This document shows, piece by piece, positions 31,451-50,392 of a DNA stretch of 64,000 nt. A model generated the notes under the pieces. The model searched no databases. It had not been told where the DNA came from and saw nothing but the letters and a program-made list of their open reading frames with translations. The translations under genes and the position numbers were made by a program. How positions within the stretch are numbered: the first letter of the stretch is position 1; each line of letters opens with the position of its first letter. Origin of the DNA: Bradyrhizobium sp. CCGB12 (GTDB lineage Bacteria > Pseudomonadota > Alphaproteobacteria > Rhizobiales > Xanthobacteraceae); contig NZ_JANADO010000001.1 of the NCBI RefSeq assembly GCF_024199845.1, positions 1,240,001 through 1,304,000 of the forward strand, written 5' to 3'.

Positions 31451-32998
31451 CTAAAGTGCGGCCGGAAAGGCAGTTTTTCCGCCGAAAAGAGACCGCGCGA
31501 GACTGTTGATCGCCGTGCGCTGTTGACGGGTCAGAACCAGGAAATATTGGGCGGCCCACGCGGCAACGCAAAAGCCGGTCATGAGGAATGCAAGGGTCGC
31601 GATCCCGGGGTCAGGCGCAAAGTGCAGGACCCCGGCAAGCAGCAGGGCGCCAAGCAGCAAGATAACCCAATGCATCGCGAGGGCCAGCCGGAACCGTTTC
31701 CCGTTGATGTCCAGTTCCCTCACGAAGGTGGCGAGTTGCCACGGCAGGATGGCGGCGAGCGCGCAAGACTGCCCCAGGATGAACGCTCTCTCCGCCAGCA
31801 GGGGCACGGCGGCAAAGGTGATTACGGCCCAGATGACCAGATGGAGCATCATCAGCATGTTCAGGCGCGCCTGGACCTTGGTGCGCGTCAAGAACACCGT
31901 GTTTCCGAACATCACGTATTGCGAGCAGATCGTGACGATGAATGCGACCCCCATCCAGGGTGCAAAGGGAGCGATCTGCGGCCCGATCCAGACATGCATG
32001 ATTGCAGGCGACATGACCGCCGCAGCGACGCAGGGCGTCACGGCAACGACCGGAAGCAGCATGATGCCTGCCTCGCCGAACCGGTTGAATTGAGCCGGAT
32101 CGTTGCGCTGATCAAGCCTGCTCACGACCGGGAGCAGCGCTGCCGTCAGCAGGCTCGTCACCACTTTCGCAAGGCGAGGGATTCTGAGCAGCGTATCGTA
32201 GACGCCGACGGCTTGCGGGCCGATATAGAGACCGATCAGGAACGGCTGGATCGGTGCGACGATGCCGCCGATCAGCTTGCCCTGCATCACGAGGAGGCAT
32301 CGAAGCAGGATTTCACGCGTGACGCCTGGCGCGGGACGGGCTGCCCTGACCCGCGTCCGGCTGAGCGCGGCGACCGAGGCGCCGAGCAGGATGAGCGCGC
32401 GCAGCAAGCTGCTGACAAGGTAGCAGTAGGTGACCACCTCGTAAGGTTGCCCGGATCTTGCGGCGTAGATGACCGCGCCGACATAGAGACCAGTCGTCAG
32501 AAGTTCGCAAATCCGCAACAGCCCGTAGCGCTCGAAACCCTTGACGATGCCTTCCCAGACGAGCGCGGGAAACATCAGCAGGTTGCTCGCCGCGGTCGCG
32601 AGCAGCATGTTGTTGAAGCTGGCGGTATCCGCGGGCGCGATCTTGAACTGGGTGACGATCAGCGGAGCAGCGAACCATATGACGAGGCTCATCGCGATAC
32701 CGAGGAGCACCGACATCAGCGTCAACAGCAGGATCTGGCTGCCGCCCAGACGACGGTCGCGATGTTCCCTGGCGCGTGCGACCACCTGCGTAGTCACTTC
32801 AGACAGGCCGAAGTCCAGCACGCCGATCAGGCCGGAGGGCAGGAACAGCCGTGTGAGAACGATGATTCCGAACTCGGCGACACCCCAGGTCTGGATGATA
32901 ATTGGAATGACCACGACGCCGAGTATCGCGACCAGTCCGAAGACGATCGCGGATACAACGGTGTTCTGGACGAGGCGCTTCAGCATGGCATGAGCCAA
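31451..32998 (-). CDS. Second Wzx-like flippase
   Basis: Polytopic protein of 515 aa (511 if the ATG at 32986 is used) with about 12-14 membrane segments and the MOP-superfamily start LVQNTVVSAIVFGLVAILGVVVIP followed by GVAEFGIIVLTR. It begins 1 bp after the SDR stop, so it belongs to the legionaminic-acid operon and may export the nonulosonate-containing unit. It is clearly distinct in sequence from the flippase at 8884-10455. Confidence 0.82.
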   Translation of the reverse strand: MAHAMLKRLVQNTVVSAIVFGLVAILGVVVIPIIIQTWGVAEFGIIVLTRLFLPSGLIGVLDFGLSEVTTQVVARAREHRDRRLGGSQILLLTLMSVLLGIAMSLVIWFAAPLIVTQFKIAPADTASFNNMLLATAASNLLMFPALVWEGIVKGFERYGLLRICELLTTGLYVGAVIYAARSGQPYEVVTYCYLVSSLLRALILLGASVAALSRTRVRAARPAPGVTREILLRCLLVMQGKLIGGIVAPIQPFLIGLYIGPQAVGVYDTLLRIPRLAKVVTSLLTAALLPVVSRLDQRNDPAQFNRFGEAGIMLLPVVAVTPCVAAAVMSPAIMHVWIGPQIAPFAPWMGVAFIVTICSQYVMFGNTVFLTRTKVQARLNMLMMLHLVIWAVITFAAVPLLAERAFILGQSCALAAILPWQLATFVRELDINGKRFRLALAMHWVILLLGALLLAGVLHFAPDPGIATLAFLMTGFCVAAWAAQYFLVLTRQQRTAINSLARSLFGGKTAFPAAL

Positions 32999-32999
32999 C

Positions 33000-33821
33000 T
33001 CACCAGGCGCTCAGACCGCCGTCGACGGCGATGTTCTGGCCGGTCACGTAGGAGGCCGCATCCGACACCAGGAACAGCATCGTCCCCACCATCTCGTCCG
33101 CACGCGCCATGCGGCCGAGCGGAATGCGGGCACCATAGCGCGCCTTGAAGGTCTCGTTCTGCCCGCTCTCCACCCCGCCCGGGGTGAGGGTATTGACGCG
33201 AACGCCTTTCGCTGCCCAGTAGGTCGCGAGGTGCTTGGTCAGGCCAATCACACCGGCTTTCGACGCCGTGTAGACCGCGGGCGTGTTGATGGCGCGGCCG
33301 AGATATTCGGAGCCCTCGTAGATGCGCTGGTCGGGCGCCATCAATCCGTAGATCGAGGCGGTCTGCACGATGGCGCCGTAGCCGCGCTCGGCCATCCCGG
33401 TGCCGAACACTTGCGCGACGTTGAACATGCCGTCGAGATTGACCGACATGATCTCGCGCCACGTCTCCTGGGAGAATTTCTCGACCGGGGCGAAGAAGGC
33501 ATCGATGTCGCGGGTCTTGCTGGCGGCGTTGTTGAGAAGGATCGAGGCCGGTCCAAGGTCGGCTTCGATCGCATCGGCCGCGTTGCGCACCGCATCGGGG
33601 TTCGTGATGTCGCAACCGTAGCCTCTGGCGCGGACGGGATGGCGTGAGGCGACGTCGGCCGCCGCCGCGTCGGTCGCGGCCTGATCGAGATCGACGATCG
33701 CGACATTGGCGCCGAACTCGGCAAGGCCCTCGACAAAGCGACGACCGAGAATACCGCAGCCGCCGGTGACGACGGCGGTCCGTCCCGTGAGATCGAACAG
33801 CGCCTTGAAGCTCGTCATCAT
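33000..33821 (-). CDS. SDR-family oxidoreductase, PtmA-like
   Basis: Classical short-chain dehydrogenase (273 aa). Nucleotide motif TGGCGILG near residue 19, NNAAS near 94, catalytic Ser in QTASIYG, YTASK (Y-x3-K), and a C-terminal YVTGQNIAVDGG. It overlaps the CMP-transferase gene by 4 bp. In Campylobacter the ptmA gene of the legionaminic pathway lies beside ptmB in the same manner; that enzyme is placed early in the pathway, before GDP activation. Assignment as PtmA rests on this gene order plus fold. Confidence 0.82.
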   Translation of the reverse strand: MMTSFKALFDLTGRTAVVTGGCGILGRRFVEGLAEFGANVAIVDLDQAATDAAAADVASRHPVRARGYGCDITNPDAVRNAADAIEADLGPASILLNNAASKTRDIDAFFAPVEKFSQETWREIMSVNLDGMFNVAQVFGTGMAERGYGAIVQTASIYGLMAPDQRIYEGSEYLGRAINTPAVYTASKAGVIGLTKHLATYWAAKGVRVNTLTPGGVESGQNETFKARYGARIPLGRMARADEMVGTMLFLVSDAASYVTGQNIAVDGGLSAW

Positions 33822-34534
33822 GATGATGTCCCTTGCTGGGCCTGCCGCTTGCGGAGCAACAGCTCCACCAGCGCGAAGTCGATCTCGGAATCGATGTCGA
33901 CCGAACGTTCTTCCGGCATCTCGAACAGGCGGGTGTCCGGATAGAATACGCGCGGATCGTCGCGGAAAGCCGCGACGTTCCAGACATAGATCGATGCGTT
34001 CATGTCGAAGCAGCGCGGGCTGTCCTGGCGGCGCACGATCGGCGGATCGGCGGTCTTCGACAGGCCCACCGTGCCGTCGCGGCGTTCCTCGACCAGATTG
34101 AAATAGGGCGACCGACGGGCGGAGGCACCCGTGATGACGCTGCGCGCCCCGGACGAGCGCAACAAGTCCACTGCTCCGACGATGTCGGAAGCCAGCCGCA
34201 GCGGCGAGGTGACATCGAGATCGACGAAGATGTCGGGGGTCTGCCCGGTCCGCGCCATCGCTTGTTCGAGGCAGTGACGGATCGCCGGGATTTTCGGCGC
34301 GGTGTCGCTCGCCATATCATCGGGGCGCTTGACCGCGAGGTCGGCGCCGGCATGCATCGCCGCGTCCAGGAGCGCGTCGGAATCGCTGCTGAAGGCGATT
34401 GTCGCGAACAGGCCGGTCTCGCGCGCCTGGGCGATGCTCCAGGCCAGCAGCGGCTTGCCGAGAAGAGTGCGGCCATTCTTGCCGGCGACGCCTTTCGAAC
34501 CGCCACGCGCGCACATCGTACATAACAGGCTCAT
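33818..34534 (-). CDS. CMP-nonulosonate cytidylyltransferase (PtmB/LegF/NeuA-like)
   Basis: 238-residue acylneuraminate cytidylyltransferase. Opening CTMCARGGSKGVAGKNGRTLLGKPLLAWSI is the family CTP-binding signature; FSSDSDALLDAA, VDLDVTSPLR and FDMNASIYVWN follow. It activates the NeuB-type product as the CMP sugar. It overlaps the Gfo/Idh gene and the SDR gene by 4 bp each. It is one of two such enzymes in the window; by operon membership this one should serve LegI (37558-38625). Confidence 0.9.
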   Translation of the reverse strand: MSLLCTMCARGGSKGVAGKNGRTLLGKPLLAWSIAQARETGLFATIAFSSDSDALLDAAMHAGADLAVKRPDDMASDTAPKIPAIRHCLEQAMARTGQTPDIFVDLDVTSPLRLASDIVGAVDLLRSSGARSVITGASARRSPYFNLVEERRDGTVGLSKTADPPIVRRQDSPRCFDMNASIYVWNVAAFRDDPRVFYPDTRLFEMPEERSVDIDSEIDFALVELLLRKRQAQQGTSS

Positions 34535-35439
34535 GCGAAAATCCAGCTCTTCGAATGCAGGGCGCGCTCGCTGGCGTCGATCAGGTCCACAACGGCAATG
34601 CCTTCGGCGAGCGAGCAGACCGGGTCGCTGCCGCTCAGCGCGGCCTGATGCATTGCCCGATAACTCGTGTCACGTTCGCTCGCGCAGGGCGTGGCGACGC
34701 CATTGACGATCAGGGCGCCGCCAACGAGATCGGCTTCGATCGTCTCGTCGGCGAGATTGATGCGGATCCGGCGCAGGCCGGCGCGGTCAAGATAGTCGAG
34801 ATGAACCTGCACGACCTGTGCCCGCGCCATCTCCATCAGCAGTGCGAGGTGGTCTTCGACCTCGAGATCGCGCGCGCCAGAGGCCCCGCCGAGCGCAGCC
34901 ACGCGTTGCCACGGCCCGAACAGCCAGAGCAGATAGTCGAGCTCATGGCTCAGGTCACGCAGCACGCCGCCTCCGGCGGCAACCGTCGAGGAAGCGGTAT
35001 CGCGGTGGTCGCGACCGGGCCGCCAATCCCTGATGTCCTGTCCGACATAGGCCGAGACCGTGATAGCGGAGCGTCCCTCGAGCCGCCGGAAGAGCGCGAC
35101 CATCACCGGATGGAAGCGCAGATTGTAGGCGACGAACAGCTTTGCGAAGGGGAGGGCTGGCAGCGGCTCGGGCCTTGCGAGCATCGGCTTCTCGACCAGA
35201 ACGGTCCCTTGAAAACCCGCCTCTGCAAGCTCGCGCAAGGCGTGGACGTGCTGTGCCGTCTCGGTGGCGATGACGACATAGTCGACCTGGCCGCGCGAAA
35301 GCGCCTCGCTGAGGCTGCGGTGATCGCCGCCGCCCCGGCGGCTGACCGTTGAGACCGCAAGGCCGAGTTCAGCGAGGATGCGCGCATGGCGCGTTCCGAT
35401 CGAACCCAGGCCTGCGACCACCGCGGTGCGTGCGCTCAC
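34531..35439 (-). CDS. Gfo/Idh/MocA-family oxidoreductase (PtmF position)
   Basis: 302-residue NAD(P)-dependent oxidoreductase. Rossmann start AVVAGLGSIGTRHARIL, DYVVIATETAQHVHAL, the family EKP motif as VLVEKPML near residue 102, and the GGGVLRDLSHELDYLLWLFG stretch. It lies between PtmE and the CMP-transferase with 4-bp overlaps on both sides, the place taken by ptmF in Campylobacter. In that pathway PtmA and PtmF are reported to act before GDP activation of glucosamine; I recall this and could not verify it here. Fold certain, role inferred. Confidence 0.82.
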   Translation of the reverse strand: MSARTAVVAGLGSIGTRHARILAELGLAVSTVSRRGGGDHRSLSEALSRGQVDYVVIATETAQHVHALRELAEAGFQGTVLVEKPMLARPEPLPALPFAKLFVAYNLRFHPVMVALFRRLEGRSAITVSAYVGQDIRDWRPGRDHRDTASSTVAAGGGVLRDLSHELDYLLWLFGPWQRVAALGGASGARDLEVEDHLALLMEMARAQVVQVHLDYLDRAGLRRIRINLADETIEADLVGGALIVNGVATPCASERDTSYRAMHQAALSGSDPVCSLAEGIAVVDLIDASERALHSKSWIFA

Positions 35440-36482
35440 TGGAAGACCTCGTGAAACTCGGCATGCGCCTGCTCGAAATCTTCGACCCGGCCGATGTCGA
35501 GCCAGTACTCCCGGATCGGATACACCGCGACGCGGCCCTCGTTCGCGACCACGCGCTCCAGAACCGCCGGCATGTCGACCCTGACGTCGCGGTCGACGAG
35601 CCGGAAGACGGTGGGACCAATGACGTAGATTCCGGCGCTCACGAACCAGCTCTCGGTCGGTTTTTCCCGGATGACCTGGAGATATCCTTCGGTTGCGGTG
35701 ACGACGCCGTAGGGGACGTGAACCTTGTGCTCGCGCACCGCCATCGTCGCCTCGGCCGGCGTTGCATTGTGGAAGTCGACCAGCGCGCCGTAATTGATGG
35801 TCGTCAGGATATCGCCATTGGTCACGACGAGCGGCAGGTCGGGCGTCGAGGGAAACAGTCCGAGCGCGCCTGCGGTGCCGAGACGCTCGGTTTCATGGAT
35901 GTAGCGGATCGTTGCGCCGAAGCTGGTGCCGTCGCCGAAATGGTTCTGGATCAACTCGGCCTTATAGTTCACCGAGATGAAGATGTTCCGAAATCCCTGC
36001 TGAACGAAGTTGCGCACGATGGTCTCGATCAGTGGGCGGCCACCGACGTGAAGCATTGGCTTCGGCATTTCGCGCGTCAGCGCGCCCAACCGCTCGCCCA
36101 GACCACCGGCCATGATCAGCACCGGATTTTCGTATTGCGGCGCTTCGAGCAGCTCGTCGAAGGTTTCGACGCCGATGACGTTGCCGTTGGCATCGAGCAG
36201 TGGAAGCTGCTTGATCGATCTCTGCCGCATCAGGCGCAGGCGTTCGTCGCGGGGCAGGGCGACGGAAGCCGAGACCGGGCTGGCGTTCATCATGTCGATC
36301 GCGCGGCCGGTCAGCGGGATGCCGCGCAACAGCCCGCGCCTGATATCGCCGTCGGTGACAATGCCAGCGAGTCTGCCGTTGTCGAGGACCAACGCAATCT
36401 GGATGCTGCCGCTCTCGATGGCGGCAATGGCCTCGCTCACCGTGGCTTCCGTTCCGACGATGGCCTTTTGCCAGGACTTCAT
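35436..36482 (-). CDS. ptmE: PtmE/LegX-like guanylyltransferase with N-terminal CBS domains
   Basis: 348-residue fusion: a CBS pair at residues 1-115 (VTDGDIRRGLLRG, LPLLDANGNVIGV), then a nucleotidyltransferase at 120-348 starting VLIMAGGLGERLGALTREMPKPMLHVGGRP. This layout is that of Campylobacter PtmE, which makes the GDP-linked glucosamine precursor of legionaminic acid. The CBS part may sense a nucleotide, giving allosteric control. The ATG at 36482 has GAGG nine bases upstream; the ORF's extra 13 residues are not needed. An 80-bp gap separates it from the formyltransferase, and it overlaps the next gene by 4 bp. Confidence 0.9.
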   Translation of the reverse strand: MKSWQKAIVGTEATVSEAIAAIESGSIQIALVLDNGRLAGIVTDGDIRRGLLRGIPLTGRAIDMMNASPVSASVALPRDERLRLMRQRSIKQLPLLDANGNVIGVETFDELLEAPQYENPVLIMAGGLGERLGALTREMPKPMLHVGGRPLIETIVRNFVQQGFRNIFISVNYKAELIQNHFGDGTSFGATIRYIHETERLGTAGALGLFPSTPDLPLVVTNGDILTTINYGALVDFHNATPAEATMAVREHKVHVPYGVVTATEGYLQVIREKPTESWFVSAGIYVIGPTVFRLVDRDVRVDMPAVLERVVANEGRVAVYPIREYWLDIGRVEDFEQAHAEFHEVFQ

Positions 36483-36562
36483 GGTGATGGACCTCGCGGC
36501 TGCGCCCGAGACGGCGCTCACCCGATCAGAAAGCTGCTATATCGCGGCTGCGAACGGGGACG

Positions 36563-37561
36563 TCAATCCCTGCGGCCGAGCCCCAGTTTGATCTCCAGAG
36601 CCGCTAATTTCGCCTCGGCCTGCGCCAAGGCGGCTGTGAGGTTTCGGCCCAAGCGGCTGCCCCGCGTTGCGGTCGGAACGAGCGCCGCGCCTAGGGTGCC
36701 GTCGGTTCCGACCGGCGCCCAGCGCGTGATCCGAATGAAGCTGTCGCCGGTCTTGACCAGGATGCCGCCATTGTCCCTGCCGATTACCTCGCCGGGCGCA
36801 CCGACATAGGATCGCGCGCCCGGGATCAGCTCGGCTGCAACGAGGGCGTAGGACCTATCTTTCCAGATCGTGCGCGCGCCGGGGCCGGGCGGCACCAGTG
36901 CGCGGACGAAACGCTCGAGCGCGACGCTGCCGGATGACCAATCGATCTCCTCGTCGCCCGGCCTGCGTCGGCAGCAATAAAGGCCGACCGGATCGATCGT
37001 CGACTGCATGATGCGCTTGTCGGTGCCGTGATAGACGTCGGAGATCGCCTCGACGAGCGTATCGGCGCAAAGCGTCTCGGCTATCTCGAGCAGCGTTGCA
37101 TAGGTGTCGGTTGCGGAGATCGGCACCTTGATCTGCCGCACGATGTCGCCGGTGTCGATGCCGAGATCGACCCAGTGAACCGTGATGCCGAACTCGGCCT
37201 CGCCGTTGATCAGCGCCCAGGTCAGCGGATTGCGGCCGCGATAGAACGGCAGCGCGCCGGCATGACAATTGAGCGTGCCACGCGGCGGCAGCGCCAGAAT
37301 GGTCTCGCGGAGGATCTGGTCATAGGACATCGAGACGTGAAGCTCGGCCGCAAAGGCCGCGATCTCGGCAAGGCTCTCCGGCGCATTGACGGCCGCAGGC
37401 TTCAGCACAGGAATGCCCTTGGCCTCCGCGAGCGCGAGAAGCGTCGAATCGGGCCGGGACGCGCGCACCGCGACGAAGGCGATGGTGTAGCGGGGATCGT
37501 CGATCAGTCGGGCGAAGGCGCGTTGTGCCCAGACGCCGTCGCCGAAATAGCCGATCCTCAT
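36563..37561 (-). CDS. Sugar N-formyltransferase
   Basis: 332-residue protein of the methionyl-tRNA formyltransferase fold. The catalytic triad is visible as N98 and H100 (LNCHAGALPFYRGRNP) and D136 in GIDTGDIV; the Asn-to-Asp distance (38) equals that in the ArnA formyltransferase domain. An Fmt-C-like domain follows at about 205-295, with a helical tail. It needs N10-formyl-tetrahydrofolate. Relatives formylate 4-amino groups of NDP-4-amino-4,6-dideoxy sugars (ArnA, VioF, WbkC). It overlaps legI by 4 bp and stands in a pathway where the acetyltransferase LegH is missing. A perosamine substrate is the alternative, given the Per-like gene at 12435-13556. Confidence 0.9.
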   Translation of the reverse strand: MRIGYFGDGVWAQRAFARLIDDPRYTIAFVAVRASRPDSTLLALAEAKGIPVLKPAAVNAPESLAEIAAFAAELHVSMSYDQILRETILALPPRGTLNCHAGALPFYRGRNPLTWALINGEAEFGITVHWVDLGIDTGDIVRQIKVPISATDTYATLLEIAETLCADTLVEAISDVYHGTDKRIMQSTIDPVGLYCCRRRPGDEEIDWSSGSVALERFVRALVPPGPGARTIWKDRSYALVAAELIPGARSYVGAPGEVIGRDNGGILVKTGDSFIRITRWAPVGTDGTLGAALVPTATRGSRLGRNLTAALAQAEAKLAALEIKLGLGRRD

Positions 37562-38625
37562 AGCGGCTCTTCCTCGTCATAAGGACGGGTGACCGTGGTG
37601 CCGATCAGCGACCAATATTCGATCGGCGGCCGGCCGGACCCTGGTCGCTTGCAGGTGAGATCCTCGGGCGCAAGCACGTCGCCGATCTTCAGCGCGCGCG
37701 CGGCCACGATGCTCTTGCGGGCGATGTCGATGTTCTTGATCTCGGAATTCCTGGGCGTCTTGATGCCGTCGCCACGCGCCTGCTCGATGCGACGGATGGC
37801 GGAGACCATGCGCTTGAAATCGCCGGGCTCGAGGGATGCCGCATGATCCGGCCCCTCGGCGTTACGGTCGAGGGTGAGGTGCTTCTCGATGATCGTGGCG
37901 CTCATCGCCACCGCCGCCAGCGAGATCTCGATACCGTCAGTATGGTCGGAATAGCCGACCGGAAGCTGGAAGGCGGTCCGCATCGTCTGCATCGCCGCAA
38001 GGTTCACGTCCTCGGACGGGCAGGGATATTCGGTGGTGCAGTGGAGCAGGCTGACCCGCTCGGACAATCGGGTGCGGGCTTCGCCGTCCCGCCATGCGGC
38101 GCGGAAGGCCGCAAGACCGGGCGGCGTGTTGCTGCGGCCGTAGCCGTGCGCAAGCACGCCCAGCGCCTCCTCGACCTCGATCAGCGTCGCCATGCCGGTC
38201 GACAGGATCAGCGGCATGTCCGCGCGCGCGATCGCATGCAGCAGCGGCGCATTGGTGAGGTCCCCCGAGCCGATCTTGATCCGGGGGAGGCCCAGCGTGA
38301 GCAGGAAATTCAGCGACTGATGATCGAACGGCGTCGACAAGAATTCAATACCGCGCTCCCTGGCGCGGGCGATCAGCGGCGGATGCGCCGCATGCGGCAG
38401 TTCGAGCCGCTTCAGCATCGCCTGCTGACTCTCGGCGGCGTCCGTCGTGCGCTGCTGGTAATCGGCCTTGCGCGCGCGCTTGCCGGCGAGCGAGTTGGCG
38501 TTGAAGGTCTGGAACTTGACGATGTCGGCGCCGGCATCGGCGGCCGCATCGACGAGGGCGAGGGCCGTTTCCAGGCTGCCGGAATGATTGACGCCGGCCT
38601 CGGCGATGATGAGCGTGCGCGTCAT
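37558..38625 (-). CDS. legI: Legionaminate/N-acylneuraminate synthase (NeuB family)
   Basis: 355-residue synthase that condenses phosphoenolpyruvate with a 2-acylamino-mannose-type sugar. NeuB domain: IIAEAGVNHSGS, DIVKFQTFNA, FLSTPFDHQS, KIGSGDLTN, STGMATLIEVEEAL, LLHCTTEYPCP, GYSDHTDGIEIS and IEKHLTLDRNAEGPDHAAS. A SAF domain follows from about residue 290 (RKSIVAARALKIGDVL). It overlaps both neighbours by 4 bp. The presence of LegB, LegC, LegG and PtmE in the same operon indicates legionaminic acid or a close derivative rather than sialic acid. Confidence 0.93.
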   Translation of the reverse strand: MTRTLIIAEAGVNHSGSLETALALVDAAADAGADIVKFQTFNANSLAGKRARKADYQQRTTDAAESQQAMLKRLELPHAAHPPLIARARERGIEFLSTPFDHQSLNFLLTLGLPRIKIGSGDLTNAPLLHAIARADMPLILSTGMATLIEVEEALGVLAHGYGRSNTPPGLAAFRAAWRDGEARTRLSERVSLLHCTTEYPCPSEDVNLAAMQTMRTAFQLPVGYSDHTDGIEISLAAVAMSATIIEKHLTLDRNAEGPDHAASLEPGDFKRMVSAIRRIEQARGDGIKTPRNSEIKNIDIARKSIVAARALKIGDVLAPEDLTCKRPGSGRPPIEYWSLIGTTVTRPYDEEEPL

Positions 38626-39791
38626 GTCGCGGCCTCGCCGTCGTAAAAACCCTTCTTCAGCAGGGTGTTGAAATCGGCAATCGCCGCAATCTTGTCGGCG
38701 ACGCGGCGACTGGTCTCGCCGTCGCCGTAGGGACTGACCGTCGGCTGCCGTCCGCGCGCGAGCGCGTCGGCGATCGCCTTCGAGATCGATGTGCGATCGG
38801 GCGCGGCGTGGAACACGGAGGCGGCGCGCTCACGTCCCTTCTGCCGGTCGCCGATGTCGACCGTCGGAACGTTGAGCGAGGGCGCTTCATAGATGCCGCT
38901 CGACGAATTGCCGACGACGACATCGGCCTGGTTCATCAGGCTGATGTAGCGAAGTTGGCCGAGGGAGGCGACCGCGATGGCGTTCGCCCGACCGGCGACG
39001 AAGGCCTTGATCCGCTCGTTGAGCGCGCGGCCTTCCGCATCGGCATTCGCAAGCGTGAAGAACAGGCTGAATTCCGGATCGAGCGCGGCGAGCGATGCGA
39101 ACAATTCATCCAGCGCGCCGACCGAACGGTCCATCTCGACCGTAACAGGATGGAACGTGACCAGGACATTGCGCTTGCCGAGCGTCATCCCGACCTCGCG
39201 GCCGATGGTCTCGCGATCCATCAGCTTGAGGCGCTTGATCGAATCGATGCCGGGCGAGCCCACGGTGAAGATGCGTGCCGGGTCCTCGCCGAGCCGGGCC
39301 AACCGCCGCGCCGAGTCGGCGTTGGTGGCAAAATGCAGGTGCGACATCTTGGTGATGGCGTGGCGGATGGCCTCGTCGATCGCACCTTCGGTCACGTCGC
39401 CGCCGAACAGATGCGCCATCGGCAGCCGCATGAACATCGCGGCCTGCGCCGCCGCAAAGGTCTCGTAGCGGTCGCCGAGCACGACGACGAGGTCCGGCTT
39501 CAGCCGGGCGAAGGCGTCAGCAAATCCGATCACGCCAAGGCCGACCGACTTGGAGACGCCGACCCCGGAATCGCTCGAAAGCAGTGTCTCGACGCTTTCG
39601 TCGACCTCAAAACCTTCGTCCCGGATGTTGTCGATGGTATAGCCGAACTCGGGCGACAGATGCATGCCGGTGGCGACGAGCTGAAGCGTCAAGCCGGGCG
39701 TTTCCCGGATCGCCCGCATTGGCCAGATGATGAGGCCGAAATCGGCGCGGCTGCCCGTGACGAAGCAGATCTTTCGGCTTGGTTCACTCAT
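38622..39791 (-). CDS. legG: LegG/NeuC-type UDP(GDP)-sugar hydrolysing 2-epimerase
   Basis: 389-residue GT-B-fold enzyme that removes the nucleotide and inverts C2 to give the manno-configured sugar for LegI. Visible: ICFVTGSRADFGLI, LVATGMHLSPEFG, GDRYETFAAAQAA, AHLFGGDVTEGAIDEAIRHAITKMSHLHF, VTFHPVTVE, and NSSSGIYEAPSLNVPTVDIGDRQKGRERA. All are signatures of the hydrolysing 2-epimerase group. It overlaps legC by 8 bp and legI by 4 bp. Confidence 0.93.
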   Translation of the reverse strand: MSEPSRKICFVTGSRADFGLIIWPMRAIRETPGLTLQLVATGMHLSPEFGYTIDNIRDEGFEVDESVETLLSSDSGVGVSKSVGLGVIGFADAFARLKPDLVVVLGDRYETFAAAQAAMFMRLPMAHLFGGDVTEGAIDEAIRHAITKMSHLHFATNADSARRLARLGEDPARIFTVGSPGIDSIKRLKLMDRETIGREVGMTLGKRNVLVTFHPVTVEMDRSVGALDELFASLAALDPEFSLFFTLANADAEGRALNERIKAFVAGRANAIAVASLGQLRYISLMNQADVVVGNSSSGIYEAPSLNVPTVDIGDRQKGRERAASVFHAAPDRTSISKAIADALARGRQPTVSPYGDGETSRRVADKIAAIADFNTLLKKGFYDGEAAT

Positions 39792-40995
39792 CGCGGGCCC
39801 GGATGCTGGCGCTGGAGGGAAGGTTGATCAGGCGGCGCTCGATCGATTCGGCGGTGCCGAGATCGCCACGCGGGTTTTGCGCGAACATCGGCAAGCGGTG
39901 CATCAACGTCCAGGCCGGGCGCGCGCCGAAGCCGGCGTCGTTCAGCGCGGCGAGCACGTCGTCGCGCCGGCCGGCATGGACCTCGTCGAGCAGGATCGCA
40001 TTGAGCCAGTAATTGCTCGTGGTGTCCTTCGGCTCCCGCGAGAAGCGGACGCCGGGCACACTCACGAAGACGCGCTCATAGGCCGCGGCCAACCGGCGCT
40101 TGCTCGCCAGGAACCCGTCGAGCTGCTCGAGCTGCGCGCAGCCGAGCGCGGCGTTCAAATTGGGCAGGCGATAGTTGAAGCCGACCTCGTCATGGATGAA
40201 GGCCCATTTGTGCGGCAGCTTTGCCGTCGTCGTCAGATGCTTGGCACGGCGTCCCAGTTCCTCGTCATTGGTGAGGATGGCTCCCCCGCCGCCTGTGGTG
40301 ACGATCTTGTTGCCGTTGAAGCTGAGGGCCGCGAGGCGCGCCCGCGATCCCACCGCGTGGCCCTTGTAGGTCGATCCGAGCGACTCCGCGGCGTCTTCCA
40401 CCAGCGCGATGCTCCACTCGTCCGCGAGGGCGGCGATCGCATCCAGATCGACGGGGTGCCCGAACGTGTGCATCGGAGCGATCGCCGCGATGCGGCGGCC
40501 AGTCTCGCGATTGATGGTGCCGGTCGCGGTCTTCTGCGCGACCGCGTCCAGGCGCACCGCGAGCGCACCCGCGTCCATGCCGAGCGTTTCGAACGAGCTG
40601 TCGACGAAGTGCGGCACAGCCCCGCAATAGGCGATCGCGTTCGTCGTCGCGATGAAGGTCAGCGCCGGCGAGATGACCTCGTCGCCGGGCTCGACGCCCG
40701 CGAGGCGGAAGCAGGCATGCAGCGCGGCCGTGCCATTGACGACGGCAACCGCGCGCTTGGCGCCGGTGATTTCCTCGAGCATGCGCTCGAACCGGTCGAC
40801 GAACGGGCCGACCGAAGAGACGAAGGTGCTTTTGATGCACTCTTCGAGATAGGCGACCTCGTTGCCGGCAAATACCGGTTCGTGCAGGCCGAGGATTCCA
40901 TTGGGGGTTCCCACCGCGCGCCGTACGGCGTCGACGATCGTCTCTGGCTCGAAGTCTGATCTGGTCACGGGACTGTCCACCATCGCCTCAGACAT
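39784..40995 (-). CDS. legC: LegC-family aminotransferase
   Basis: PLP aminotransferase of the DegT family (403 aa from the ATG at 40995; an ATG at 40983 is also possible). The LegC start PLHEPVFAGNE-like stretch appears as LGLHEPVFAGNEVAYLEECI, followed by VNGTAALHACFRLAGV, ISPALTFIATTNAI, LVEDAAESLGS and LSFNGNKIVTTGGGGAIL with the Schiff-base Lys in NGNK. It adds the 4-amino group to the keto sugar from LegB. It overlaps LegB (8 bp) and LegG, consistent with the pathway order. Confidence 0.92.
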   Translation of the reverse strand: MSEAMVDSPVTRSDFEPETIVDAVRRAVGTPNGILGLHEPVFAGNEVAYLEECIKSTFVSSVGPFVDRFERMLEEITGAKRAVAVVNGTAALHACFRLAGVEPGDEVISPALTFIATTNAIAYCGAVPHFVDSSFETLGMDAGALAVRLDAVAQKTATGTINRETGRRIAAIAPMHTFGHPVDLDAIAALADEWSIALVEDAAESLGSTYKGHAVGSRARLAALSFNGNKIVTTGGGGAILTNDEELGRRAKHLTTTAKLPHKWAFIHDEVGFNYRLPNLNAALGCAQLEQLDGFLASKRRLAAAYERVFVSVPGVRFSREPKDTTSNYWLNAILLDEVHAGRRDDVLAALNDAGFGARPAWTLMHRLPMFAQNPRGDLGTAESIERRLINLPSSASIRARDE

Positions 40996-42007
40996 TGTAG
41001 ACGTCAGCCTTGTAGCGGTTGAGATTTGTGGGATTGGTGAACCAGTTGACCGTCTTGACCATGCCGCGGCGCATGCCGTCGACACCGCCGAATTCGGGGC
41101 TCCAGCCGAGTTGCTGGCGTGCCTTGGAATTGTCGGCCCAGAGCCGCTCGACCTCGCTGTTGGCGGGGCGCAGGCGCGCCTCGTCGGTCTCGATTTCGAT
41201 CGGCGTTCCCATGACGTCGGCGATCATCTGTGCGGTCGCGCCGACCGAGATCTCAAAACCGCTGCCGAGATTGATGGTCTGACCGACGACCTGTTCCGCA
41301 GGCGCCGTGAGGCCCGCGATCAGGCCGCGTGCAGTGTCGGTGACGAAGGAGAAATCCCGGGTCGGGCTGACGGCGCCGAGGCGGATCTTCCGCTTGCCGG
41401 TCGCGATCTGGCTGATGATCGTCGGGATCACCGCGCGCGCCGATTGCCGCGGACCGAAGGTGTTGAACGGGCGGATCACCACGACCGGCATGTCGAACGA
41501 AGCCTGGAACGACAGCGCCATCTGATCGGAGGCGATCTTCGAGGCTGAGTAGGGCGACTGTCCGACCAGCGGATGGCTTTCCTTGATCGGAACGCTCTGC
41601 GCCGTGCCGTAGACCTCGCTGGTCGACGTCTGCACGAAGCGGCGCACGCCGGCCATGCGCGCGGCCTGGAGCACGTTCACGGTGCCGCGAACGTTGGTCT
41701 CGACATAGGAATCCGGCGCAACATAGGAGAACGGGATCGCGATCAGCGCCGCCAGATGCAGCACGTCGGTGCAGCCGCTCGCGGCCTGGATCATGAAATG
41801 GGGATCGCGGATGTCGCCGGCAACAACCTCGACGGACGTCATCACGCCGGGCGAGACCGTGTCGAGCCAGCCCCAGGAGCTGAAGGAGTTGTAGTAGACG
41901 ACCGCCTTGACGCGGGCGCCGGCCTTCACCAGTTCCTCGACGACATGCGAGCCGATGAAGCCATCGCTGCCGGTGACGAGGACGCGGGCGTCCCTCAGAT
42001 CTTCCAT
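40988..42007 (-). CDS. legB: LegB-type NDP-N-acetylglucosamine 4,6-dehydratase
   Basis: Extended SDR (339 aa from the ATG at 42007, with GGGG six bases upstream; a TTG 12 bp earlier is less likely). VLVTGSDGFIGSHV is the Rossmann motif, KAVVYYNSFSSWGWLD is a stretch specific to LegB-like dehydratases, TSTSEVYGTA and SPYSASKI give the catalytic set. It makes the 4-keto-6-deoxy intermediate from GDP-GlcNAc. A 119-bp gap separates it from the upstream heptose-type fusion gene, so an internal promoter is possible. Confidence 0.92.
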   Translation of the reverse strand: MEDLRDARVLVTGSDGFIGSHVVEELVKAGARVKAVVYYNSFSSWGWLDTVSPGVMTSVEVVAGDIRDPHFMIQAASGCTDVLHLAALIAIPFSYVAPDSYVETNVRGTVNVLQAARMAGVRRFVQTSTSEVYGTAQSVPIKESHPLVGQSPYSASKIASDQMALSFQASFDMPVVVIRPFNTFGPRQSARAVIPTIISQIATGKRKIRLGAVSPTRDFSFVTDTARGLIAGLTAPAEQVVGQTINLGSGFEISVGATAQMIADVMGTPIEIETDEARLRPANSEVERLWADNSKARQQLGWSPEFGGVDGMRRGMVKTVNWFTNPTNLNRYKADVYNV

Positions 42008-42138: not shown

Positions 42139-43341
42139 CTAGGCGGTCCTGGCCGGTATCAGGCGTTGCTTCACGAATGCTTCCAGATTCCCGCCCGAAA
42201 ACAGATGGCCGGCCACGCCGGCCGCCTGCGCCGCCTCCATGTCGGTTTCCTTGTCGCCGATCACCATGCTGCGCGTCATGTCGACGGGAAAGCGCCCGAG
42301 AAGGTCGGTGATCATGCCGGGCGCCGGCTTGCGTCGGTCGCTCGTACGGCAATAGCGCGCGACCGTGCCGTCGGGATGATCAGGGCAGTATTCGAACGCG
42401 TCGATATGCGCGCCGATCGGCGCCATCTGGTCCGCCATCCAGCGATGCAGGGTGACGACGTGGTGCTCTTCGTAGTAGCCGCGCGCGACGCCGGACTGGT
42501 TGGTGATGACGAAGGCAAAATAGCCGGCGTCGTTGACGGCTTTCACGGCCTCGCGGGCGCCATCGATCCATTCGAGCTTGTGCGTTTCGAACGTGTATCC
42601 TGAATCGTGGTTGAGGACGCCGTCGCGATCGAAGAACACGGCCGGCCGCCGCAGCTTCTCCCGCAATTCACGATCGGCGCGCGCGAAATCGTCTGGAATG
42701 CCAATGTCGATGAAGTAGCCGCGATAGGCCGTGCCCCGCAGCGCCCCCGACGCGGCAAGGCCGGGGAACACGTCCTGCTCGAGCGAGGCGGGAAGCTTCG
42801 CGATGTCGGCGAGAATGGATTTGTCGACGACGTAGATGCCGGCATTGACCGGTCCCGTGGCGCCCGCGCCAGGGGCGATGAAGTCACGCACCACGTCGCC
42901 TTCGAGCACGACGCGGCCGTACCGATCGCCGACGACGCCGTCGCGCAGCGCCATATGAACGCGGCCGTCATCGGCCCGCGCGATCAAGTCGAGCATGTTG
43001 AAGTCGAACAGCGAGTCACCATTGAGCAGCAGGAAACGGTCGTGCAGCAGGTCGCGCGCATGCACGAGCGCCCCGCCGGTGCCGAGCGGCTCGATCTCGC
43101 GCGATACGAGGATCTTCGCCCGGCCCCTGGTCGCATTGCCATAATGGGTCTCGACGATCTCGGCCTTGTGTCCTGCGAGCAGGAGTATCTCATCGAACAC
43201 GTCATAGCGTACGAGCTCGTCGATCAGCGTGTCGAGAAACGGCCGCCCGCCGACGTCGAGCATCGGCTTCGGAACCAGCCTGGTGCGCTCACCTAGCCGG
43301 GTGCCCAGCCCTCCGACGAGGATGGCGGCCTGTCTCAACAT
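42139..43341 (-). CDS. Fusion of sugar-phosphate nucleotidyltransferase (HddC-like) and HAD-IIIA phosphatase (GmhB-like)
   Basis: 400-residue bifunctional protein. Residues 1-230 form a nucleotidyltransferase (AILVGGLGTRLGERTRLVPKPML, GTGGALVHA, LLNGDSLFDF) like D-glycero-D-manno-heptose-1-phosphate guanylyltransferase. Residues 233-395 are a HAD-IIIA phosphatase, with AVFFDRDGVLN carrying nucleophile D238 and D240, ITNQSGVARG, a CPDHPDG..C zinc-loop-like segment, RRKPAPGM and MVIGDKETDMEAA. In the GDP-heptose pathway these two steps are consecutive (bisphosphate phosphatase, then guanylyltransferase). GmhA and HddA are not in the window. It heads the long operon. Confidence 0.87.
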   Translation of the reverse strand: MLRQAAILVGGLGTRLGERTRLVPKPMLDVGGRPFLDTLIDELVRYDVFDEILLLAGHKAEIVETHYGNATRGRAKILVSREIEPLGTGGALVHARDLLHDRFLLLNGDSLFDFNMLDLIARADDGRVHMALRDGVVGDRYGRVVLEGDVVRDFIAPGAGATGPVNAGIYVVDKSILADIAKLPASLEQDVFPGLAASGALRGTAYRGYFIDIGIPDDFARADRELREKLRRPAVFFDRDGVLNHDSGYTFETHKLEWIDGAREAVKAVNDAGYFAFVITNQSGVARGYYEEHHVVTLHRWMADQMAPIGAHIDAFEYCPDHPDGTVARYCRTSDRRKPAPGMITDLLGRFPVDMTRSMVIGDKETDMEAAQAAGVAGHLFSGGNLEAFVKQRLIPARTA

Positions 43342-47435: not shown

Positions 47436-49691
47436 TCAACGCTGCTCGAAATGCGCAAGGCGGTGCAGCGCTATCCGAAAACCCTCTCCGTCGTTTTCAT
47501 GTCCCTGCCATATTTCAGGAATGAACGACGCGCGCGGCGCCTTGTTGTTGAGCACACGAAAGACGTTTCCGAAATCGATCTCACCTTCCCCGATCTGAAG
47601 CCCTTCTCCATCGACACCGCGTGCATCCGCCATATGCACGTGGGCGACGAATGGCCCGATCGTCTCCATGAACTCGTCGAAGGACCAGCCGTTCTCGGTG
47701 CATGCAAGCTGGGAGTGAGAGGTATCGAAGCAGATCTTCATGCCCAGCTCCTGACAGCTGCGCAAGATGTCGCTGCTGGACACGAAAAGGTTGTGGTAAC
47801 GCTGCCCCCCGAAGTGCCAGGGATAGGGCGGCATGGTCTGCGGCCAGATCTCGACCTCCGGATCCGTGAGATCCCGCACGCTTGACCGGAGCTGAACCTC
47901 ACGGGCGGCCCTCTCTTCCGCTGTCAAGAAACGCACCGATGAAAAGCCGCCCACATTGCAGATGATGCCCGTGGGGCCGTTCTTTCTGAAGCGTTGCGCC
48001 AGCGCTTTTGTCTTGGCGATGACGCGTTGCATTTCCTGGATTGAACGCCTGCGATAAGCCTCGTCGGGCGTCGTAAGATCGAGGACATGATCACCTTCGA
48101 AAAGTTCCGGTGCATGCACGATCAGCCCGCACTCATAGCGCTCGCCCAGAAAATCGGCGTCGACGATGCCAAGATCACGGTAGCTGAGGTGAAATTCGAC
48201 AAAGTCGGGATTGATCGCCTCGATCAGTTTTTTGGCGTCGCGATGGCGCACGGGGATACCCCATGGACGACGGAACCCCGGTTTCGCGCTGTCTCCGCTG
48301 ATCGGATTGAGCTCCGAAATGTCGGATGGATACAGCGGGGTCTGCGCAGGGATCGTGCGCCGCGCCTTCTGGCCGATCACCTCGTTGATGCGGTTGGGAG
48401 AAAGGCCCTGGCCGGGGCTGCGAATTTCCAGCGCCTCGCGCTGGATCGTCGCTCCGGCCTCGATCGTGTCGACCGCAAAGATCGATTTGCCGAGGCTGAT
48501 GCGATTGGCTTTTTCCCCCTGGCTCAGAATTCGAGGTAGGGCGGTGCCCAGGGAGTCCTCGACCTGGCGCACACCTTCGGCCATGCGTTTGAACTCATGC
48601 GGTAGCAGGCTAACCTTGTGGTCGTTGCCTTCCTGTTCGCGGTCAAGCGTGAAATGTTTCTCGATCAGGCGGGCGCCCATCGCGACGGCTGCGACGGAAA
48701 CGAAGACGTCGCGTTCATGTCCGGAATATCCTACGACGCTCTCGCAGAGTTCCTGCAGTCGCTGCATGTATCTCAAATTGATGTCGCGGAACGGCGCCGG
48801 ATATGTCGAATTGCAATGGAGCATGACGTACTCGGCTCCGGATGTCTGGAACAGTTTCACCGTTTCGCGGATCTCGTCTTCCGTCGACATTCCGGTCGAG
48901 CAGATTGTGGGAATACGCTGGTCAACGATGTACTGCAGCAATTCGTGGTTGGTCAGGTCCGCGGATGCGGTCTTGATGGCCTTCAACCCGTAGGCTCGGC
49001 ACTTGTCGGCGCTGTTGATGTCAAACGCCGTGCACAGGGGCTCCATCCCCAGCGATGACGTATAGTCAAAGCAGCGGTAGAGATCCTCGTCGCTGAGCTG
49101 AAACCGGTCCAGAAGATCCAGCACGTATTCGGTGCCGAGGTCCTCACTCTGGCTCTTGGTGCGCTTTCCGTACAGACCAGTCATGTCGCGCATCTGAAAC
49201 TTGGCGGCATCGGCACCGGCCTCCGCGGATGCCTTGATCAATCCGAAGGCAGCTTCGAGGCTGCCATTATGATTGTTTCCGATCTCCGAGATCAGGAAAG
49301 TCCGATTTTCCTCCGCGATGATGCGGCTACCGATCTTGATGCCTTCGCCGGGGTGCCGTTGCCGGGCGACGCCGACGACATGCCGTTCGGCGTCGACCAG
49401 TGGAACGTAGAGCACCTCTCTGAGCAGCCGATTTGCGGTTTCCCGGTCACCCGAGACGGCGCTGCGGACGCGACGGTTGCAGAGGTCGCCCACTGCCGCC
49501 GCCACGCCGGCGGAAGCGCCGGCGCCGATCCAGCGAATGATATCGCCATTCGACAGGCTGCCGAGCAGCCGCCCGCCGCCATCGACACAGAAGACGATTT
49601 CACGACGGTTTGCCGCAACCTTGCTCGCCGCCTCCTGAATGGAGGCGTCTTCGTGGATCAGATAGCTTTGAAGATCTCTATCGATGATCAT
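47436..49691 (-). CDS. Triple-domain nonulosonate synthase: CBS pair + NeuB/SAF + TIM-barrel (sugar isomerase-like)
   Basis: 751-residue fusion. Residues 1-125 are a CBS-like pair (FCVDGGGRLLGSLSNGDIIRW, LYVPLVDAERHVVGV). Residues 126-385 are a NeuB synthase (FLISEIGNNHNGS, AAKFQMRD, TAFDINS, KTASADLTN, STGMSTEDEI, LHCNSTYPAP, IEKHFTLDREQEGNDHKVS). Residues 398-458 are a SAF domain. Residues about 475-751 are a TIM barrel of the xylose-isomerase/AP-endonuclease type (EFHLSYRDLG, ICFDTSHSQLA, VAHVHMADARGVDGEGLQIGEGEIDF). The ATG at 49691 overlaps the cytidylyltransferase stop (ATGA). Typical NeuB is about 350 aa. Confidence 0.9.
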   Translation of the reverse strand: MIIDRDLQSYLIHEDASIQEAASKVAANRREIVFCVDGGGRLLGSLSNGDIIRWIGAGASAGVAAAVGDLCNRRVRSAVSGDRETANRLLREVLYVPLVDAERHVVGVARQRHPGEGIKIGSRIIAEENRTFLISEIGNNHNGSLEAAFGLIKASAEAGADAAKFQMRDMTGLYGKRTKSQSEDLGTEYVLDLLDRFQLSDEDLYRCFDYTSSLGMEPLCTAFDINSADKCRAYGLKAIKTASADLTNHELLQYIVDQRIPTICSTGMSTEDEIRETVKLFQTSGAEYVMLHCNSTYPAPFRDINLRYMQRLQELCESVVGYSGHERDVFVSVAAVAMGARLIEKHFTLDREQEGNDHKVSLLPHEFKRMAEGVRQVEDSLGTALPRILSQGEKANRISLGKSIFAVDTIEAGATIQREALEIRSPGQGLSPNRINEVIGQKARRTIPAQTPLYPSDISELNPISGDSAKPGFRRPWGIPVRHRDAKKLIEAINPDFVEFHLSYRDLGIVDADFLGERYECGLIVHAPELFEGDHVLDLTTPDEAYRRRSIQEMQRVIAKTKALAQRFRKNGPTGIICNVGGFSSVRFLTAEERAAREVQLRSSVRDLTDPEVEIWPQTMPPYPWHFGGQRYHNLFVSSSDILRSCQELGMKICFDTSHSQLACTENGWSFDEFMETIGPFVAHVHMADARGVDGEGLQIGEGEIDFGNVFRVLNNKAPRASFIPEIWQGHENDGEGFRIALHRLAHFEQR

Positions 49692-50392
49692 GTTGCGATG
49701 TTCCCGCGGAACGCTGCCTCGGCTGCTTCCCAATCGGACATTTCGTCGAGCTCGATACTCGAGCTTTCATCCATCTCGTGGATCGTAATCTTGCCGTGAA
49801 GGCGGGCGTTGCCGCTTCTGATTTGCTGGACAAGCGAGATATAGAAGGCGCCGTTCTCCATGAGAGTGCCGTTCCATTGCTGGCGCAGCGGGCGTTTTGC
49901 CGGATCGTAATTTATCGGCGTTCCATTGTCATTCCAGAAGAACCGCCGGGTCCTTACACAGGTCACCAGCGAGTCGGCCCCCGATTCGAGAAGATGGTTG
50001 ATCGCCGCCGAGATGTCCGTGGTGGTTGTTTGCGGACTCGTCGCCTGCGCGGTGACGAGGTATTTTTCATCGATGCCGCAGGCGGCGATGAGGTCGACGA
50101 GCGCCGCTTCCGTGGTCGCACTGTCTGTGGCCAGATGAGCAGGGCGCGGATGGATCAGGATTCTGGCATCGATTGATCTGGCCACGGCCGCAATCTCATC
50201 GCTATCCGTGGAGACAAAGATCCGCGAAATCAAGTCACAACCGAGAAGGGCCCTCAGCGTCCATTCGCAGAGAGGCTTGCCGCAGAAGGGTCTGATGTTC
50301 TTGCCCGGAATGGACTTCGATCCGCCACGAAGCGGAACGACCGCTGCGATACCCTGCCTGACAAGGGACGTGTTCGTGAGATCAGCGATCAT
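49688..50392 (-). CDS. Acylneuraminate cytidylyltransferase (second)
   Basis: 234-residue CMP-sugar synthetase from the ATG at 50392; the longer ORF adds 17 residues. AAVVPLRGGSKSIPGKNIRPFCGKPLCEW is the CTP-binding signature, followed by FVSTDSDEIAAVA and VTAQATSPQTTT. It is coupled by a 4-bp overlap to the triple-fusion NeuB, so this pair makes and activates a second nonulosonic acid. It is not close in wording to the enzyme at 33818-34534. Confidence 0.88.
   Translation of the reverse strand: MIADLTNTSLVRQGIAAVVPLRGGSKSIPGKNIRPFCGKPLCEWTLRALLGCDLISRIFVSTDSDEIAAVARSIDARILIHPRPAHLATDSATTEAALVDLIAACGIDEKYLVTAQATSPQTTTTDISAAINHLLESGADSLVTCVRTRRFFWNDNGTPINYDPAKRPLRQQWNGTLMENGAFYISLVQQIRSGNARLHGKITIHEMDESSSIELDEMSDWEAAEAAFRGNIAT

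What the first reader, a model, noticed from the sequence alone, without database searches (positions are those of the whole stretch)
36563..42007. Legionaminic-acid pathway in which a formyltransferase seems to replace LegH
The operon has PtmE, LegB, LegC, LegG, LegI, CMP-transferase and PtmA/PtmF-like genes but no N-acetyltransferase. In the published pathway LegH acetylates the 4-amino group put on by LegC; that nitrogen becomes N7 of the nine-carbon sugar. Exactly in this operon, coupled to legI, is an intact sugar N-formyltransferase with the N98/H100/D136 triad. Prediction: the product is a 7-N-formyl legionaminic acid derivative (such as Leg5Ac7Fo) rather than the 5,7-diacetyl form.
Basis: partly seen in the sequence, partly recalled or inferred. 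Interest (0 to 1): 0.85.

Follow-up and report, generated by a model that had tools for sequence, protein, structure and literature searches.

The report
Formyl-for-acetyl swap in legionaminic-acid operon
In some Bradyrhizobium bacteria the operon that makes the sialic-acid-like sugar legionaminic acid carries a formyl-adding enzyme exactly where close relatives carry the usual acetyl-adding enzyme, so these bacteria probably put a differently capped version of the sugar on their surface.

Summary
A Bradyrhizobium genome carries a legionaminic-acid operon, LegB-LegC-LegG-LegI-[formyltransferase]-PtmE-PtmF-CMP-transferase-PtmA. The formyltransferase (FT, 36563-37561) overlaps legI by ATGA, and no NeuD- or PseH-type acetyltransferase over the family cut-offs is in the genome. 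In 43 Bradyrhizobium genomes with the orthologous operon (this one included), the slot between legI and ptmE holds this FT in 7, a NeuD-type acetyltransferase in 33 and neither in 3, never both. Six of the 7 FT genomes lack a full-length NeuD; all 36 others have one (E 1e-30). In published Plesiomonas shigelloides the same gene order has LegH (NeuD type) in that slot. Relatives of the FT (about 43-48% identity) sit in leg clusters of an Elusimicrobia MAG, Acetobacterium and another proteobacterium. On the LegB+LegC tree the FT/NeuD state changed at least three times. Most likely the FT formylates the 4-amino group made by LegC, giving CMP-Leg5Ac7Fo; the chemistry is inferred. Formyl-for-acetyl swaps are known for other amino sugars, and an N-formyl-Leg (assigned 5-N) is known from an archaeon, so this is a new variant of a known kind.

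The parts
36563..37561 (-). Formyltransferase (FT), 332 aa; proposed to replace LegH and formylate the 4-amino group of the LegC product
37558..38625 (-). LegI, legionaminic-acid-type synthase (NeuB family)
   Evidence: TIGR03569 466 bits over cut-off; PseI model 249, below its cut-off of 340
38622..39791 (-). LegG, hydrolysing 2-epimerase (NeuC family)
   Evidence: TIGR03568 445 bits over cut-off
39784..40995 (-). LegC, 4-aminotransferase that makes the free 4-amine
   Evidence: TIGR04181 521 bits over cut-off; start overlaps LegB stop
40988..42004 (-). LegB, 4,6-dehydratase; the only over-cut-off copy in the genome
   Evidence: TIGR04180 495 bits over cut-off
42139..43341 (-). Nucleotidyltransferase fused to a GmhB-like HAD phosphatase, head of the conserved block, role unknown
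   Evidence: NTP_transferase and HAD models; upstream of legB in the genus
35436..36521 (-). PtmE-like CBS plus NTP-transferase (GDP-sugar supply, by homology)
   Evidence: CBS and NTP_transferase
34531..35439 (-). PtmF-like GFO/IDH/MocA oxidoreductase
   Evidence: Pfam; name by context
33818..34534 (-). CMP-sugar transferase, LegF role by context
   Evidence: CTP_transf_3; best NCBIfam model PseF 103 bits, below cut-off 205.7
33000..33821 (-). PtmA-like short-chain dehydrogenase
   Evidence: adh_short_C2
31451..32998 (-). Putative flippase following the operon (wzx is my label; no Pfam match at 1e-3)
   Evidence: Position after PtmA in the genus; one search gave no family

Best explanation
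The FT is a sugar N-formyltransferase that takes over the LegH step. PtmE and other enzymes make GDP-GlcNAc; LegB and LegC turn it into GDP-4-amino-4,6-dideoxy-GlcNAc; the FT moves a formyl group from N10-formyl-tetrahydrofolate to that free 4-amine. LegG removes GDP and inverts C2, LegI adds pyruvate, and the CMP-transferase activates the sugar, so C4 becomes C7 and the product is CMP-Leg5Ac7Fo instead of CMP-Leg5Ac7Ac. Shown by sequence here: the operon, its gene order, the FT fold and catalytic residues, absence of known LegH types, the FT/NeuD alternation at one slot, exchange of the block around it. Inferred: acceptor, order of steps, product and its fate in a surface polysaccharide.
For: Slot alternation FT 7 / NeuD 33 / neither 3 of 43 orthologous operons, never both. 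NeuD (E 1e-30) anywhere in the genome in 1 of 7 FT genomes, 36 of 36 orthologous-operon genomes without FT and 49 of 191 genus genomes without LegI; Fisher p 1.1e-6 for the first two, not corrected for relatedness. Slot NeuD (L061) is over the cut-off of the NeuD/PglB/VioB family; its best solved relatives are perosamine N-acetyltransferase, a pilin glycosylation protein (4m98), VioB and PglD, which acetylate the 4-amine of NDP-4-amino-4,6-dideoxysugars (recalled). P. shigelloides lists the same gene order with LegH there; a legH insertion mutant makes no flagella and is complemented (passages). FT subfamily: 3 of 398 genomes of the phylum at E below 1e-120 (next best 3e-54), all three inside the LegB cluster; 7 of 265 Bradyrhizobium, all in the slot; leg clusters of L024 and L025. 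FT rows are not one clade on LegB+LegC (AU p 4e-68 for 6 rows, 0.0044 for 5), and the FT label needs 4 changes there against 2 on LegG+LegI. The genome has its own over-cut-off fmt.
Against: No biochemistry. G461 (B. lablabi type) has FT in the slot and a NeuD elsewhere. Distant FT-like genes coexist with NeuD in leg clusters of G246 and G063, as FT, LegH and NeuD do in Halorubrum, so the two are not exclusive everywhere. Six of 22 over-cut-off LegB clusters in the phylum sample have neither in the fetched stretch; three of those six have an over-cut-off NeuD elsewhere, three do not. The three slot-empty Bradyrhizobium genomes have only an unlinked NeuD of 149-154 bits, under the curated cut-off, so an acyltransferase may act from elsewhere. 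L025 has only a weak LegC match, about 7 kb away. PtmE and PtmF, which act before acylation, are in the exchanged block too, and the CMP-transferase+PtmA tree also needs only 2 changes, so the block may be plain linkage with an unclear right end. No clean substrate-specificity positions were found in LegG or LegI.
Confidence: 0.85

Rival explanations
1. The FT formylates another 4-amino sugar of the same polysaccharide, for example GDP-perosamine, and the LegC product is acetylated by an unlinked GNAT.
Against: The FT overlaps legI and sits in the LegH slot, and its relatives in four lineages stay with leg genes. NeuD is missing from 6 of 7 genomes where FT is present. Another formyltransferase of unknown role, not over the fmt cut-off (L002), is available for other sugars.
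Confidence: 0.08
2. The formyl group is added at another step or position: at N5 (via the 2-amine) or on the finished nonulosonate.
For: Halorubrum N-formyl-Leg was assigned as 5-N-formyl, with a putative FT gene beside legG (passages and Discussion).
Against: LegH/NeuD, the enzyme whose slot it takes, is the 4-amine acylator (recalled for the characterised members); only the 4-amine is free when GDP-GlcNAc is the start. Halorubrum also keeps LegH and NeuD, unlike this genome.
Confidence: 0.05
3. It is a displaced methionyl-tRNA formyltransferase, as several sources name it, with no role in the sugar pathway.
For: Closest solved relative by sequence is an Fmt; most source names given say methionyl-tRNA formyltransferase.
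Against: Scores 143.9 against the fmt cut-off of 201.5; a separate fmt scores 270.9; an 8-residue stretch of the P. aeruginosa Fmt is absent (5uai alignment; a tRNA-binding role of that loop is recalled); linkage to leg clusters in four lineages.
Confidence: 0.01

Closest known systems
GDP-route CMP-legionaminic acid pathway (C. jejuni; P. shigelloides operon in PMC4481668, passages)
   Same: LegB, LegC, LegG, LegI, PtmE, PtmF, PtmA, CMP-transferase; same gene order as the P. shigelloides table
   Different: LegH is missing; a formyltransferase is in its slot; no GlmU-like gene among the ten operon proteins scanned
PseJ, N-formyltransferase of a pseudaminic-acid pathway (PDB 6ci2, 6ci4; role recalled)
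   Same: A formyltransferase serving a nonulosonate pathway; Pse5Ac7Fo is a known sugar (Pseudoalteromonas distincta, cited in PMC3210612, passage)
   Different: Legionaminic not pseudaminic branch; PseJ matches our FT only weakly (39 bits over 85 residues) and its chains are shorter, 192-217 residues
WbkC (GDP-perosamine formyltransferase) against PerB (perosamine N-acetyltransferase); VioF (recalled) against VioB
   Same: Formyl and acetyl transferases alternate on the 4-amine of one NDP-sugar; PerB and VioB are among the nearest solved relatives of the slot NeuD, WbkC is a relative of the FT
   Different: Those sugars are used as they are; here the acyl group is carried on into a nine-carbon sugar
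N-formyl-legionaminic acid of Halorubrum sp. PV6 and its virus HRPV-1 (PMC6137143, outline, passages, Discussion)
   Same: N-formylated Leg found by mass spectrometry; a putative FT gene in the leg cluster
   Different: Assigned as 5-N-formyl; LegH and NeuD both present; FT only 'possibly' assigned; archaeon
Formyltransferase/acetyltransferase alternation in flagellin islands (Geobacillus fmt3 for fdtC, PMC5109656; Pectobacterium Fmt3 against WbbJ2, PMC4875605; passages)
   Same: Same inference from position: a formyltransferase gene in one strain where an acetyltransferase gene lies in another
   Different: Other sugars; single strains; no genus-wide or tree analysis in the passages seen

Membership tests
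GDP-route legionaminic-acid pathway | LegB, LegC, LegG and LegI orthologues | tested here: met
   All four over curated cut-offs
GDP-route legionaminic-acid pathway | GDP-sugar supply genes (PtmE, PtmF, PtmA type) | tested here: inconclusive
   Right domains and P. shigelloides gene order; no equivalog model over cut-off; UDP or GDP use not testable
GDP-route legionaminic-acid pathway | CMP-legionaminate synthetase (LegF) | tested here: inconclusive
   CTP_transf_3 domain; PseF model 103 bits under cut-off 205.7
GDP-route legionaminic-acid pathway | LegH N-acetyltransferase of NeuD or PseH type | tested here: not met
   None over cut-off in the genome; FT occupies its slot
Sugar N-formyltransferase | Asn/His/Asp catalytic triad in a Formyl_trans_N fold | tested here: met
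   N98, H100, D136; fold
Sugar N-formyltransferase | Activity on an NDP-amino sugar with N10-formyl-THF | not testable with these tools
   Inferred from the operon
Methionyl-tRNA formyltransferase | Over the curated fmt cut-off | tested here: not met
   143.9 against 201.5; the genome's own fmt 270.9
PseJ | Member of a pseudaminic pathway (PseB, PseC, PseI) | tested here: not met
   PseC model 239 (cut-off 423.5), PseI 249 (340), PseB 56 (408): all below cut-off

The most novel reading that the evidence does not exclude
Bradyrhizobium carries a recombining acyl switch: an exchangeable legG-legI-acyltransferase-ptmE-ptmF cassette, in formyl or acetyl form, that has moved between otherwise conserved legionaminic-acid operons several times and changes N7 of a surface sugar from acetyl to formyl (Leg5Ac7Fo, not found in the papers searched). 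LegG and LegI may travel with their acyltransferase because they handle the acylated intermediate, and the switch would diversify the surface seen by phages and legume hosts.
Probability: 0.5. Interest if true: 0.68.

Novelty: new variant of a known kind. Interest (0 to 1): 0.58.

Why it matters
If true, the acyl group at N7 of legionaminic acid can be predicted from one gene slot, which would help read the many uncharacterised leg operons. It adds the legionaminic branch to the list of sugars where bacteria swap acetyl for formyl. Closely related Bradyrhizobium differ at exactly this step, so one pair of strains allows a clean test of what N-formylation of a sialic-acid-like surface sugar does for phages, lectins or legume symbiosis. 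Most source names given call these enzymes methionyl-tRNA formyltransferase, so the subfamily could be renamed; its stretch NCHAG[AK]LPFYRGRN is in the 13 strong rows (some are the same gene fetched twice) and not in the 4 weak ones.

Tried and rejected
Methionyl-tRNA formyltransferase: rejected. A NeuD or PseH elsewhere in the genome: none over cut-off. Specificity positions separating FT-type from NeuD-type LegG or LegI: no clean column; the few found (1 in LegG, 2 in LegI, 1 in PtmE, 3 in CMP-transferase, 0 in LegB and LegC) are not convincing. NeuD remnant in the slot-empty operons: only a 12-residue match in L113 at E 0.17, so not shown. Plasmid records: four matches at 30-32% identity, probably other formyltransferases, not followed. 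Papers naming Leg5Ac7Fo, Leg5Fo7Ac, 7-N-formyl-Leg or the like: for N-formyl-Leg only PMC6137143 and PMC6805947 (listing only); this library lacks most subscription journals, so absence is weak. Bradyrhizobium with legionaminic: 9 papers listed; two of them were seen by passages, PMC4823718 (only a citation) and PMC4481668. Passages of PMC13317340, PMC7439481, PMC8053191 and PMC7281560 were also seen and did not change the reading.

Limits of the counts: the genome search scored only the best few candidates per genome for some queries (5, 8, 11). In one search, 187 of 398 genomes had some match at E 1e-30; I count as subfamily only the three below 1e-120 and take the rest for other formyltransferases, which I did not check one by one. 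L146 (an 87% complete MAG with masked bases and a broken LegI reading) counts among the 7 FT operons but was left out of the trees, which hold 6 FT, 33 NeuD and 3 slot-empty rows. The NeuD profile was built from 13 loci that it then found again; their NeuD calls rest on TIGR03570 (11 over the cut-off, G119 and G063 below it). The AU tests were run after the tree had been seen.
Full report
Check of the observation. The window lies in a 9.4-Mb genome at G000:C1:1240001-1304000; the closest named relatives of its FT are Bradyrhizobium. On the - strand the genes run NTP/HAD fusion, LegB, LegC, LegG, LegI, FT, PtmE-like, PtmF-like, CMP-transferase, PtmA-like. LegB, LegC, LegG and LegI are over the curated cut-offs of their NCBIfam models. 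legI and the FT overlap by ATGA. The FT has Formyl_trans_N and Formyl_trans_C domains, and N98, H100 and D136 align with Fmt and ArnA. Nothing of the NeuD family (best 57 bits, cut-off 160.8) or PseH family (best 45, cut-off 93.1) is over cut-off in the genome, and LegB is present once over cut-off.

Conserved linkage. A scan of genome contigs gave five relatives: three Bradyrhizobium, an Elusimicrobia MAG (L024) and Acetobacterium wieringae (L025). All five stand next to legI with other leg genes; L022 is cut before legB, and in L025 the only LegC-like match is a weak one about 7 kb away. Of 398 genomes of the same phylum (Pseudomonadota, by knowledge), 32 have LegB at E 1e-100, 22 of them over cut-off. 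The FT subfamily is strongly matched (E below 1e-120) in 3 of 398 (G000, G035, G064), each inside the LegB cluster; the next best match is 3e-54. In G064 the order is LegB-LegC-FT-LegI-LegG-PtmE. Of the 22 over-cut-off LegB clusters, 3 have the FT, 13 have NeuD in the fetched stretch, and 6 have neither; three of these six (G032, G185, G340) have an over-cut-off NeuD elsewhere, three (G253, G362, G381) do not. The 10 clusters below cut-off have neither. Two of the 13 (G246, G063) also have a distant FT-like gene.

The swap inside one genus. LegI was found in 74 of 265 Bradyrhizobium genomes, and I fetched the surroundings of the 73 other than G000, which the window covers. In 43 the operon is orthologous (LegI 74% or more identical; the rest are 54% or less). 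Its slot between legI and ptmE holds the FT in 7, NeuD in 33 and neither in 3, never both. In all 33 the NeuD gene lies on the strand opposite to the operon (L061 in detail). The other 31 LegI loci have no FT of this subfamily; NeuD is in the fetched stretch of 28, and of the other three, NeuD is elsewhere in G443 and G552 and not found in the incomplete G539. Genome-wide, a NeuD at E 1e-30 is present in 116 of 265 genomes: 1 of 7 FT genomes (G461), 36 of 36 orthologous-operon genomes without FT, and 49 of 191 without LegI. The NeuD of the three slot-empty genomes (G626, G574, G641) is unlinked and scores 149-154 bits, full length but under the curated cut-off. One of the 7 FT genomes, G549, is an 87% complete MAG. 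The FT subfamily occurs in 7 of 265 genomes, all in the slot; an eighth match (G580, 168 bits) is a far weaker relative.

Cassette exchange. Protein identity to the window for the NeuD-type main group (30 operons, without L111, L112 and L124) is 93-96% for LegB and 86-92% for LegC, but 74-78% for LegG, 74-77% for LegI, 76-79% for PtmE and 67-70% for PtmF; four FT-type operons (L105-L108) have 92-97, 90-93, 94-96, 94-96, 92-95 and 86-94. DNA identity steps at the legC/legG border; the right end is less clear, as the CMP-transferase varies in both types. On the LegB+LegC tree (42 rows) the FT label needs 4 changes, at least 3 forced by starred branches; on LegG+LegI, PtmE+PtmF and CMP-transferase+PtmA it needs 2. 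FT rows as one clade on LegB+LegC are rejected (p-AU 4e-68 with the B. lablabi-type row, 0.0044 without). In the B. lablabi group (L109-L113, L124), FT, NeuD and empty slots alternate with little difference in LegG and LegI, so these enzymes need not be replaced together with the acyltransferase.

What the slot means. The slot NeuD (L061) is over the cut-off of NeuD/PglB/VioB family sugar acetyltransferase (199.5 bits). Its nearest solved relatives are perosamine N-acetyltransferase (4ea7), a pilin glycosylation protein (4m98), VioB (7txp) and PglD (3bss), which by established knowledge acetylate 4-amines of NDP-4-amino-4,6-dideoxysugars. In P. shigelloides the published gene table runs GlmU-PtmA-LegF-PtmF-PtmE-LegH-LegI-LegG-LegC-LegB, with LegH a NeuD-type protein whose insertion mutant loses flagella and is complemented (PMC4481668, passages). 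The FT therefore stands where LegH stands.

Mechanism. The free amine at that point is the 4-amine put on by LegC. Formylation there, then LegG, LegI and CMP transfer, would yield CMP-Leg5Ac7Fo. This step is inferred. In Halorubrum sp. PV6 an FT gene in the leg cluster goes with an N-formyl-Leg in the glycan, assigned as 5-N-formyl; there LegH and NeuD are also present (PMC6137143, passages and Discussion). The mass step printed there (m/z 1546.65 to 1697.70, doubly charged, 302.1 Da) fits one formyl and one acetyl and does not by itself tell N5 from N7; the original assignment (Kandiba 2012) I have not seen.

Against and open. G461 keeps an unlinked NeuD; distant FT-like genes coexist with NeuD in two clusters; three operons have an empty slot and an unlinked NeuD; six phylum clusters have neither nearby; the window has a perosamine-synthetase-like gene. 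None of these removes the alternation, but only enzymology or glycan analysis can fix the acceptor and the product.

Verdict. It is a new variant of a known kind: formyl-for-acetyl exchange is known for perosamine, Qui4N and pseudaminic acid (partly recalled) and has been inferred from gene position in flagellin islands, while the replacement of LegH, its recurrence in one genus and the cassette exchange were not found in the papers searched.

Noticed in passing
window 47436-49733 and 49688-50443, - strand: A 765-aa fusion of CBS, NeuB, SAF and a xylose-isomerase-like (AP_endonuc_2) domain next to its own CMP-sugar transferase: a second nonulosonate-type system; a 45% relative lies in G035 (L057 2324-4201).
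   Followed up: partly
L061 13948-14610 and the NeuD-type operons L111, L112, L114-L140, L142-L145: In all 33 NeuD-type Bradyrhizobium operons NeuD lies on the strand opposite to the operon it is embedded in.
   Followed up: partly
window 42139-43341, - strand: Nucleotidyltransferase fused to a GmhB-like phosphatase, at the head of the leg operon in the genus; no role in the Leg pathway is obvious.
   Followed up: no
window 5185-8508, + strand: 1107-aa ORF with an HELGHAVGLKH zinc-protease-like motif near its start and about five near-identical internal repeats of roughly 120 residues (read).
   Followed up: no
L051 6202-7128 and L058 6239-7162: Distant formyltransferase-like genes inside leg clusters that also hold NeuD, as in Halorubrum; possibly formylation at another nitrogen.
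   Followed up: no
window 12435-13697, - strand: Perosamine-synthetase-like aminotransferase (3bn1, 307 bits) in the same polysaccharide region.
   Followed up: partly
window 50667-52349, + strand: Carbamoyltransferase beside the second NeuB system, perhaps decorating the same glycan.
   Followed up: no
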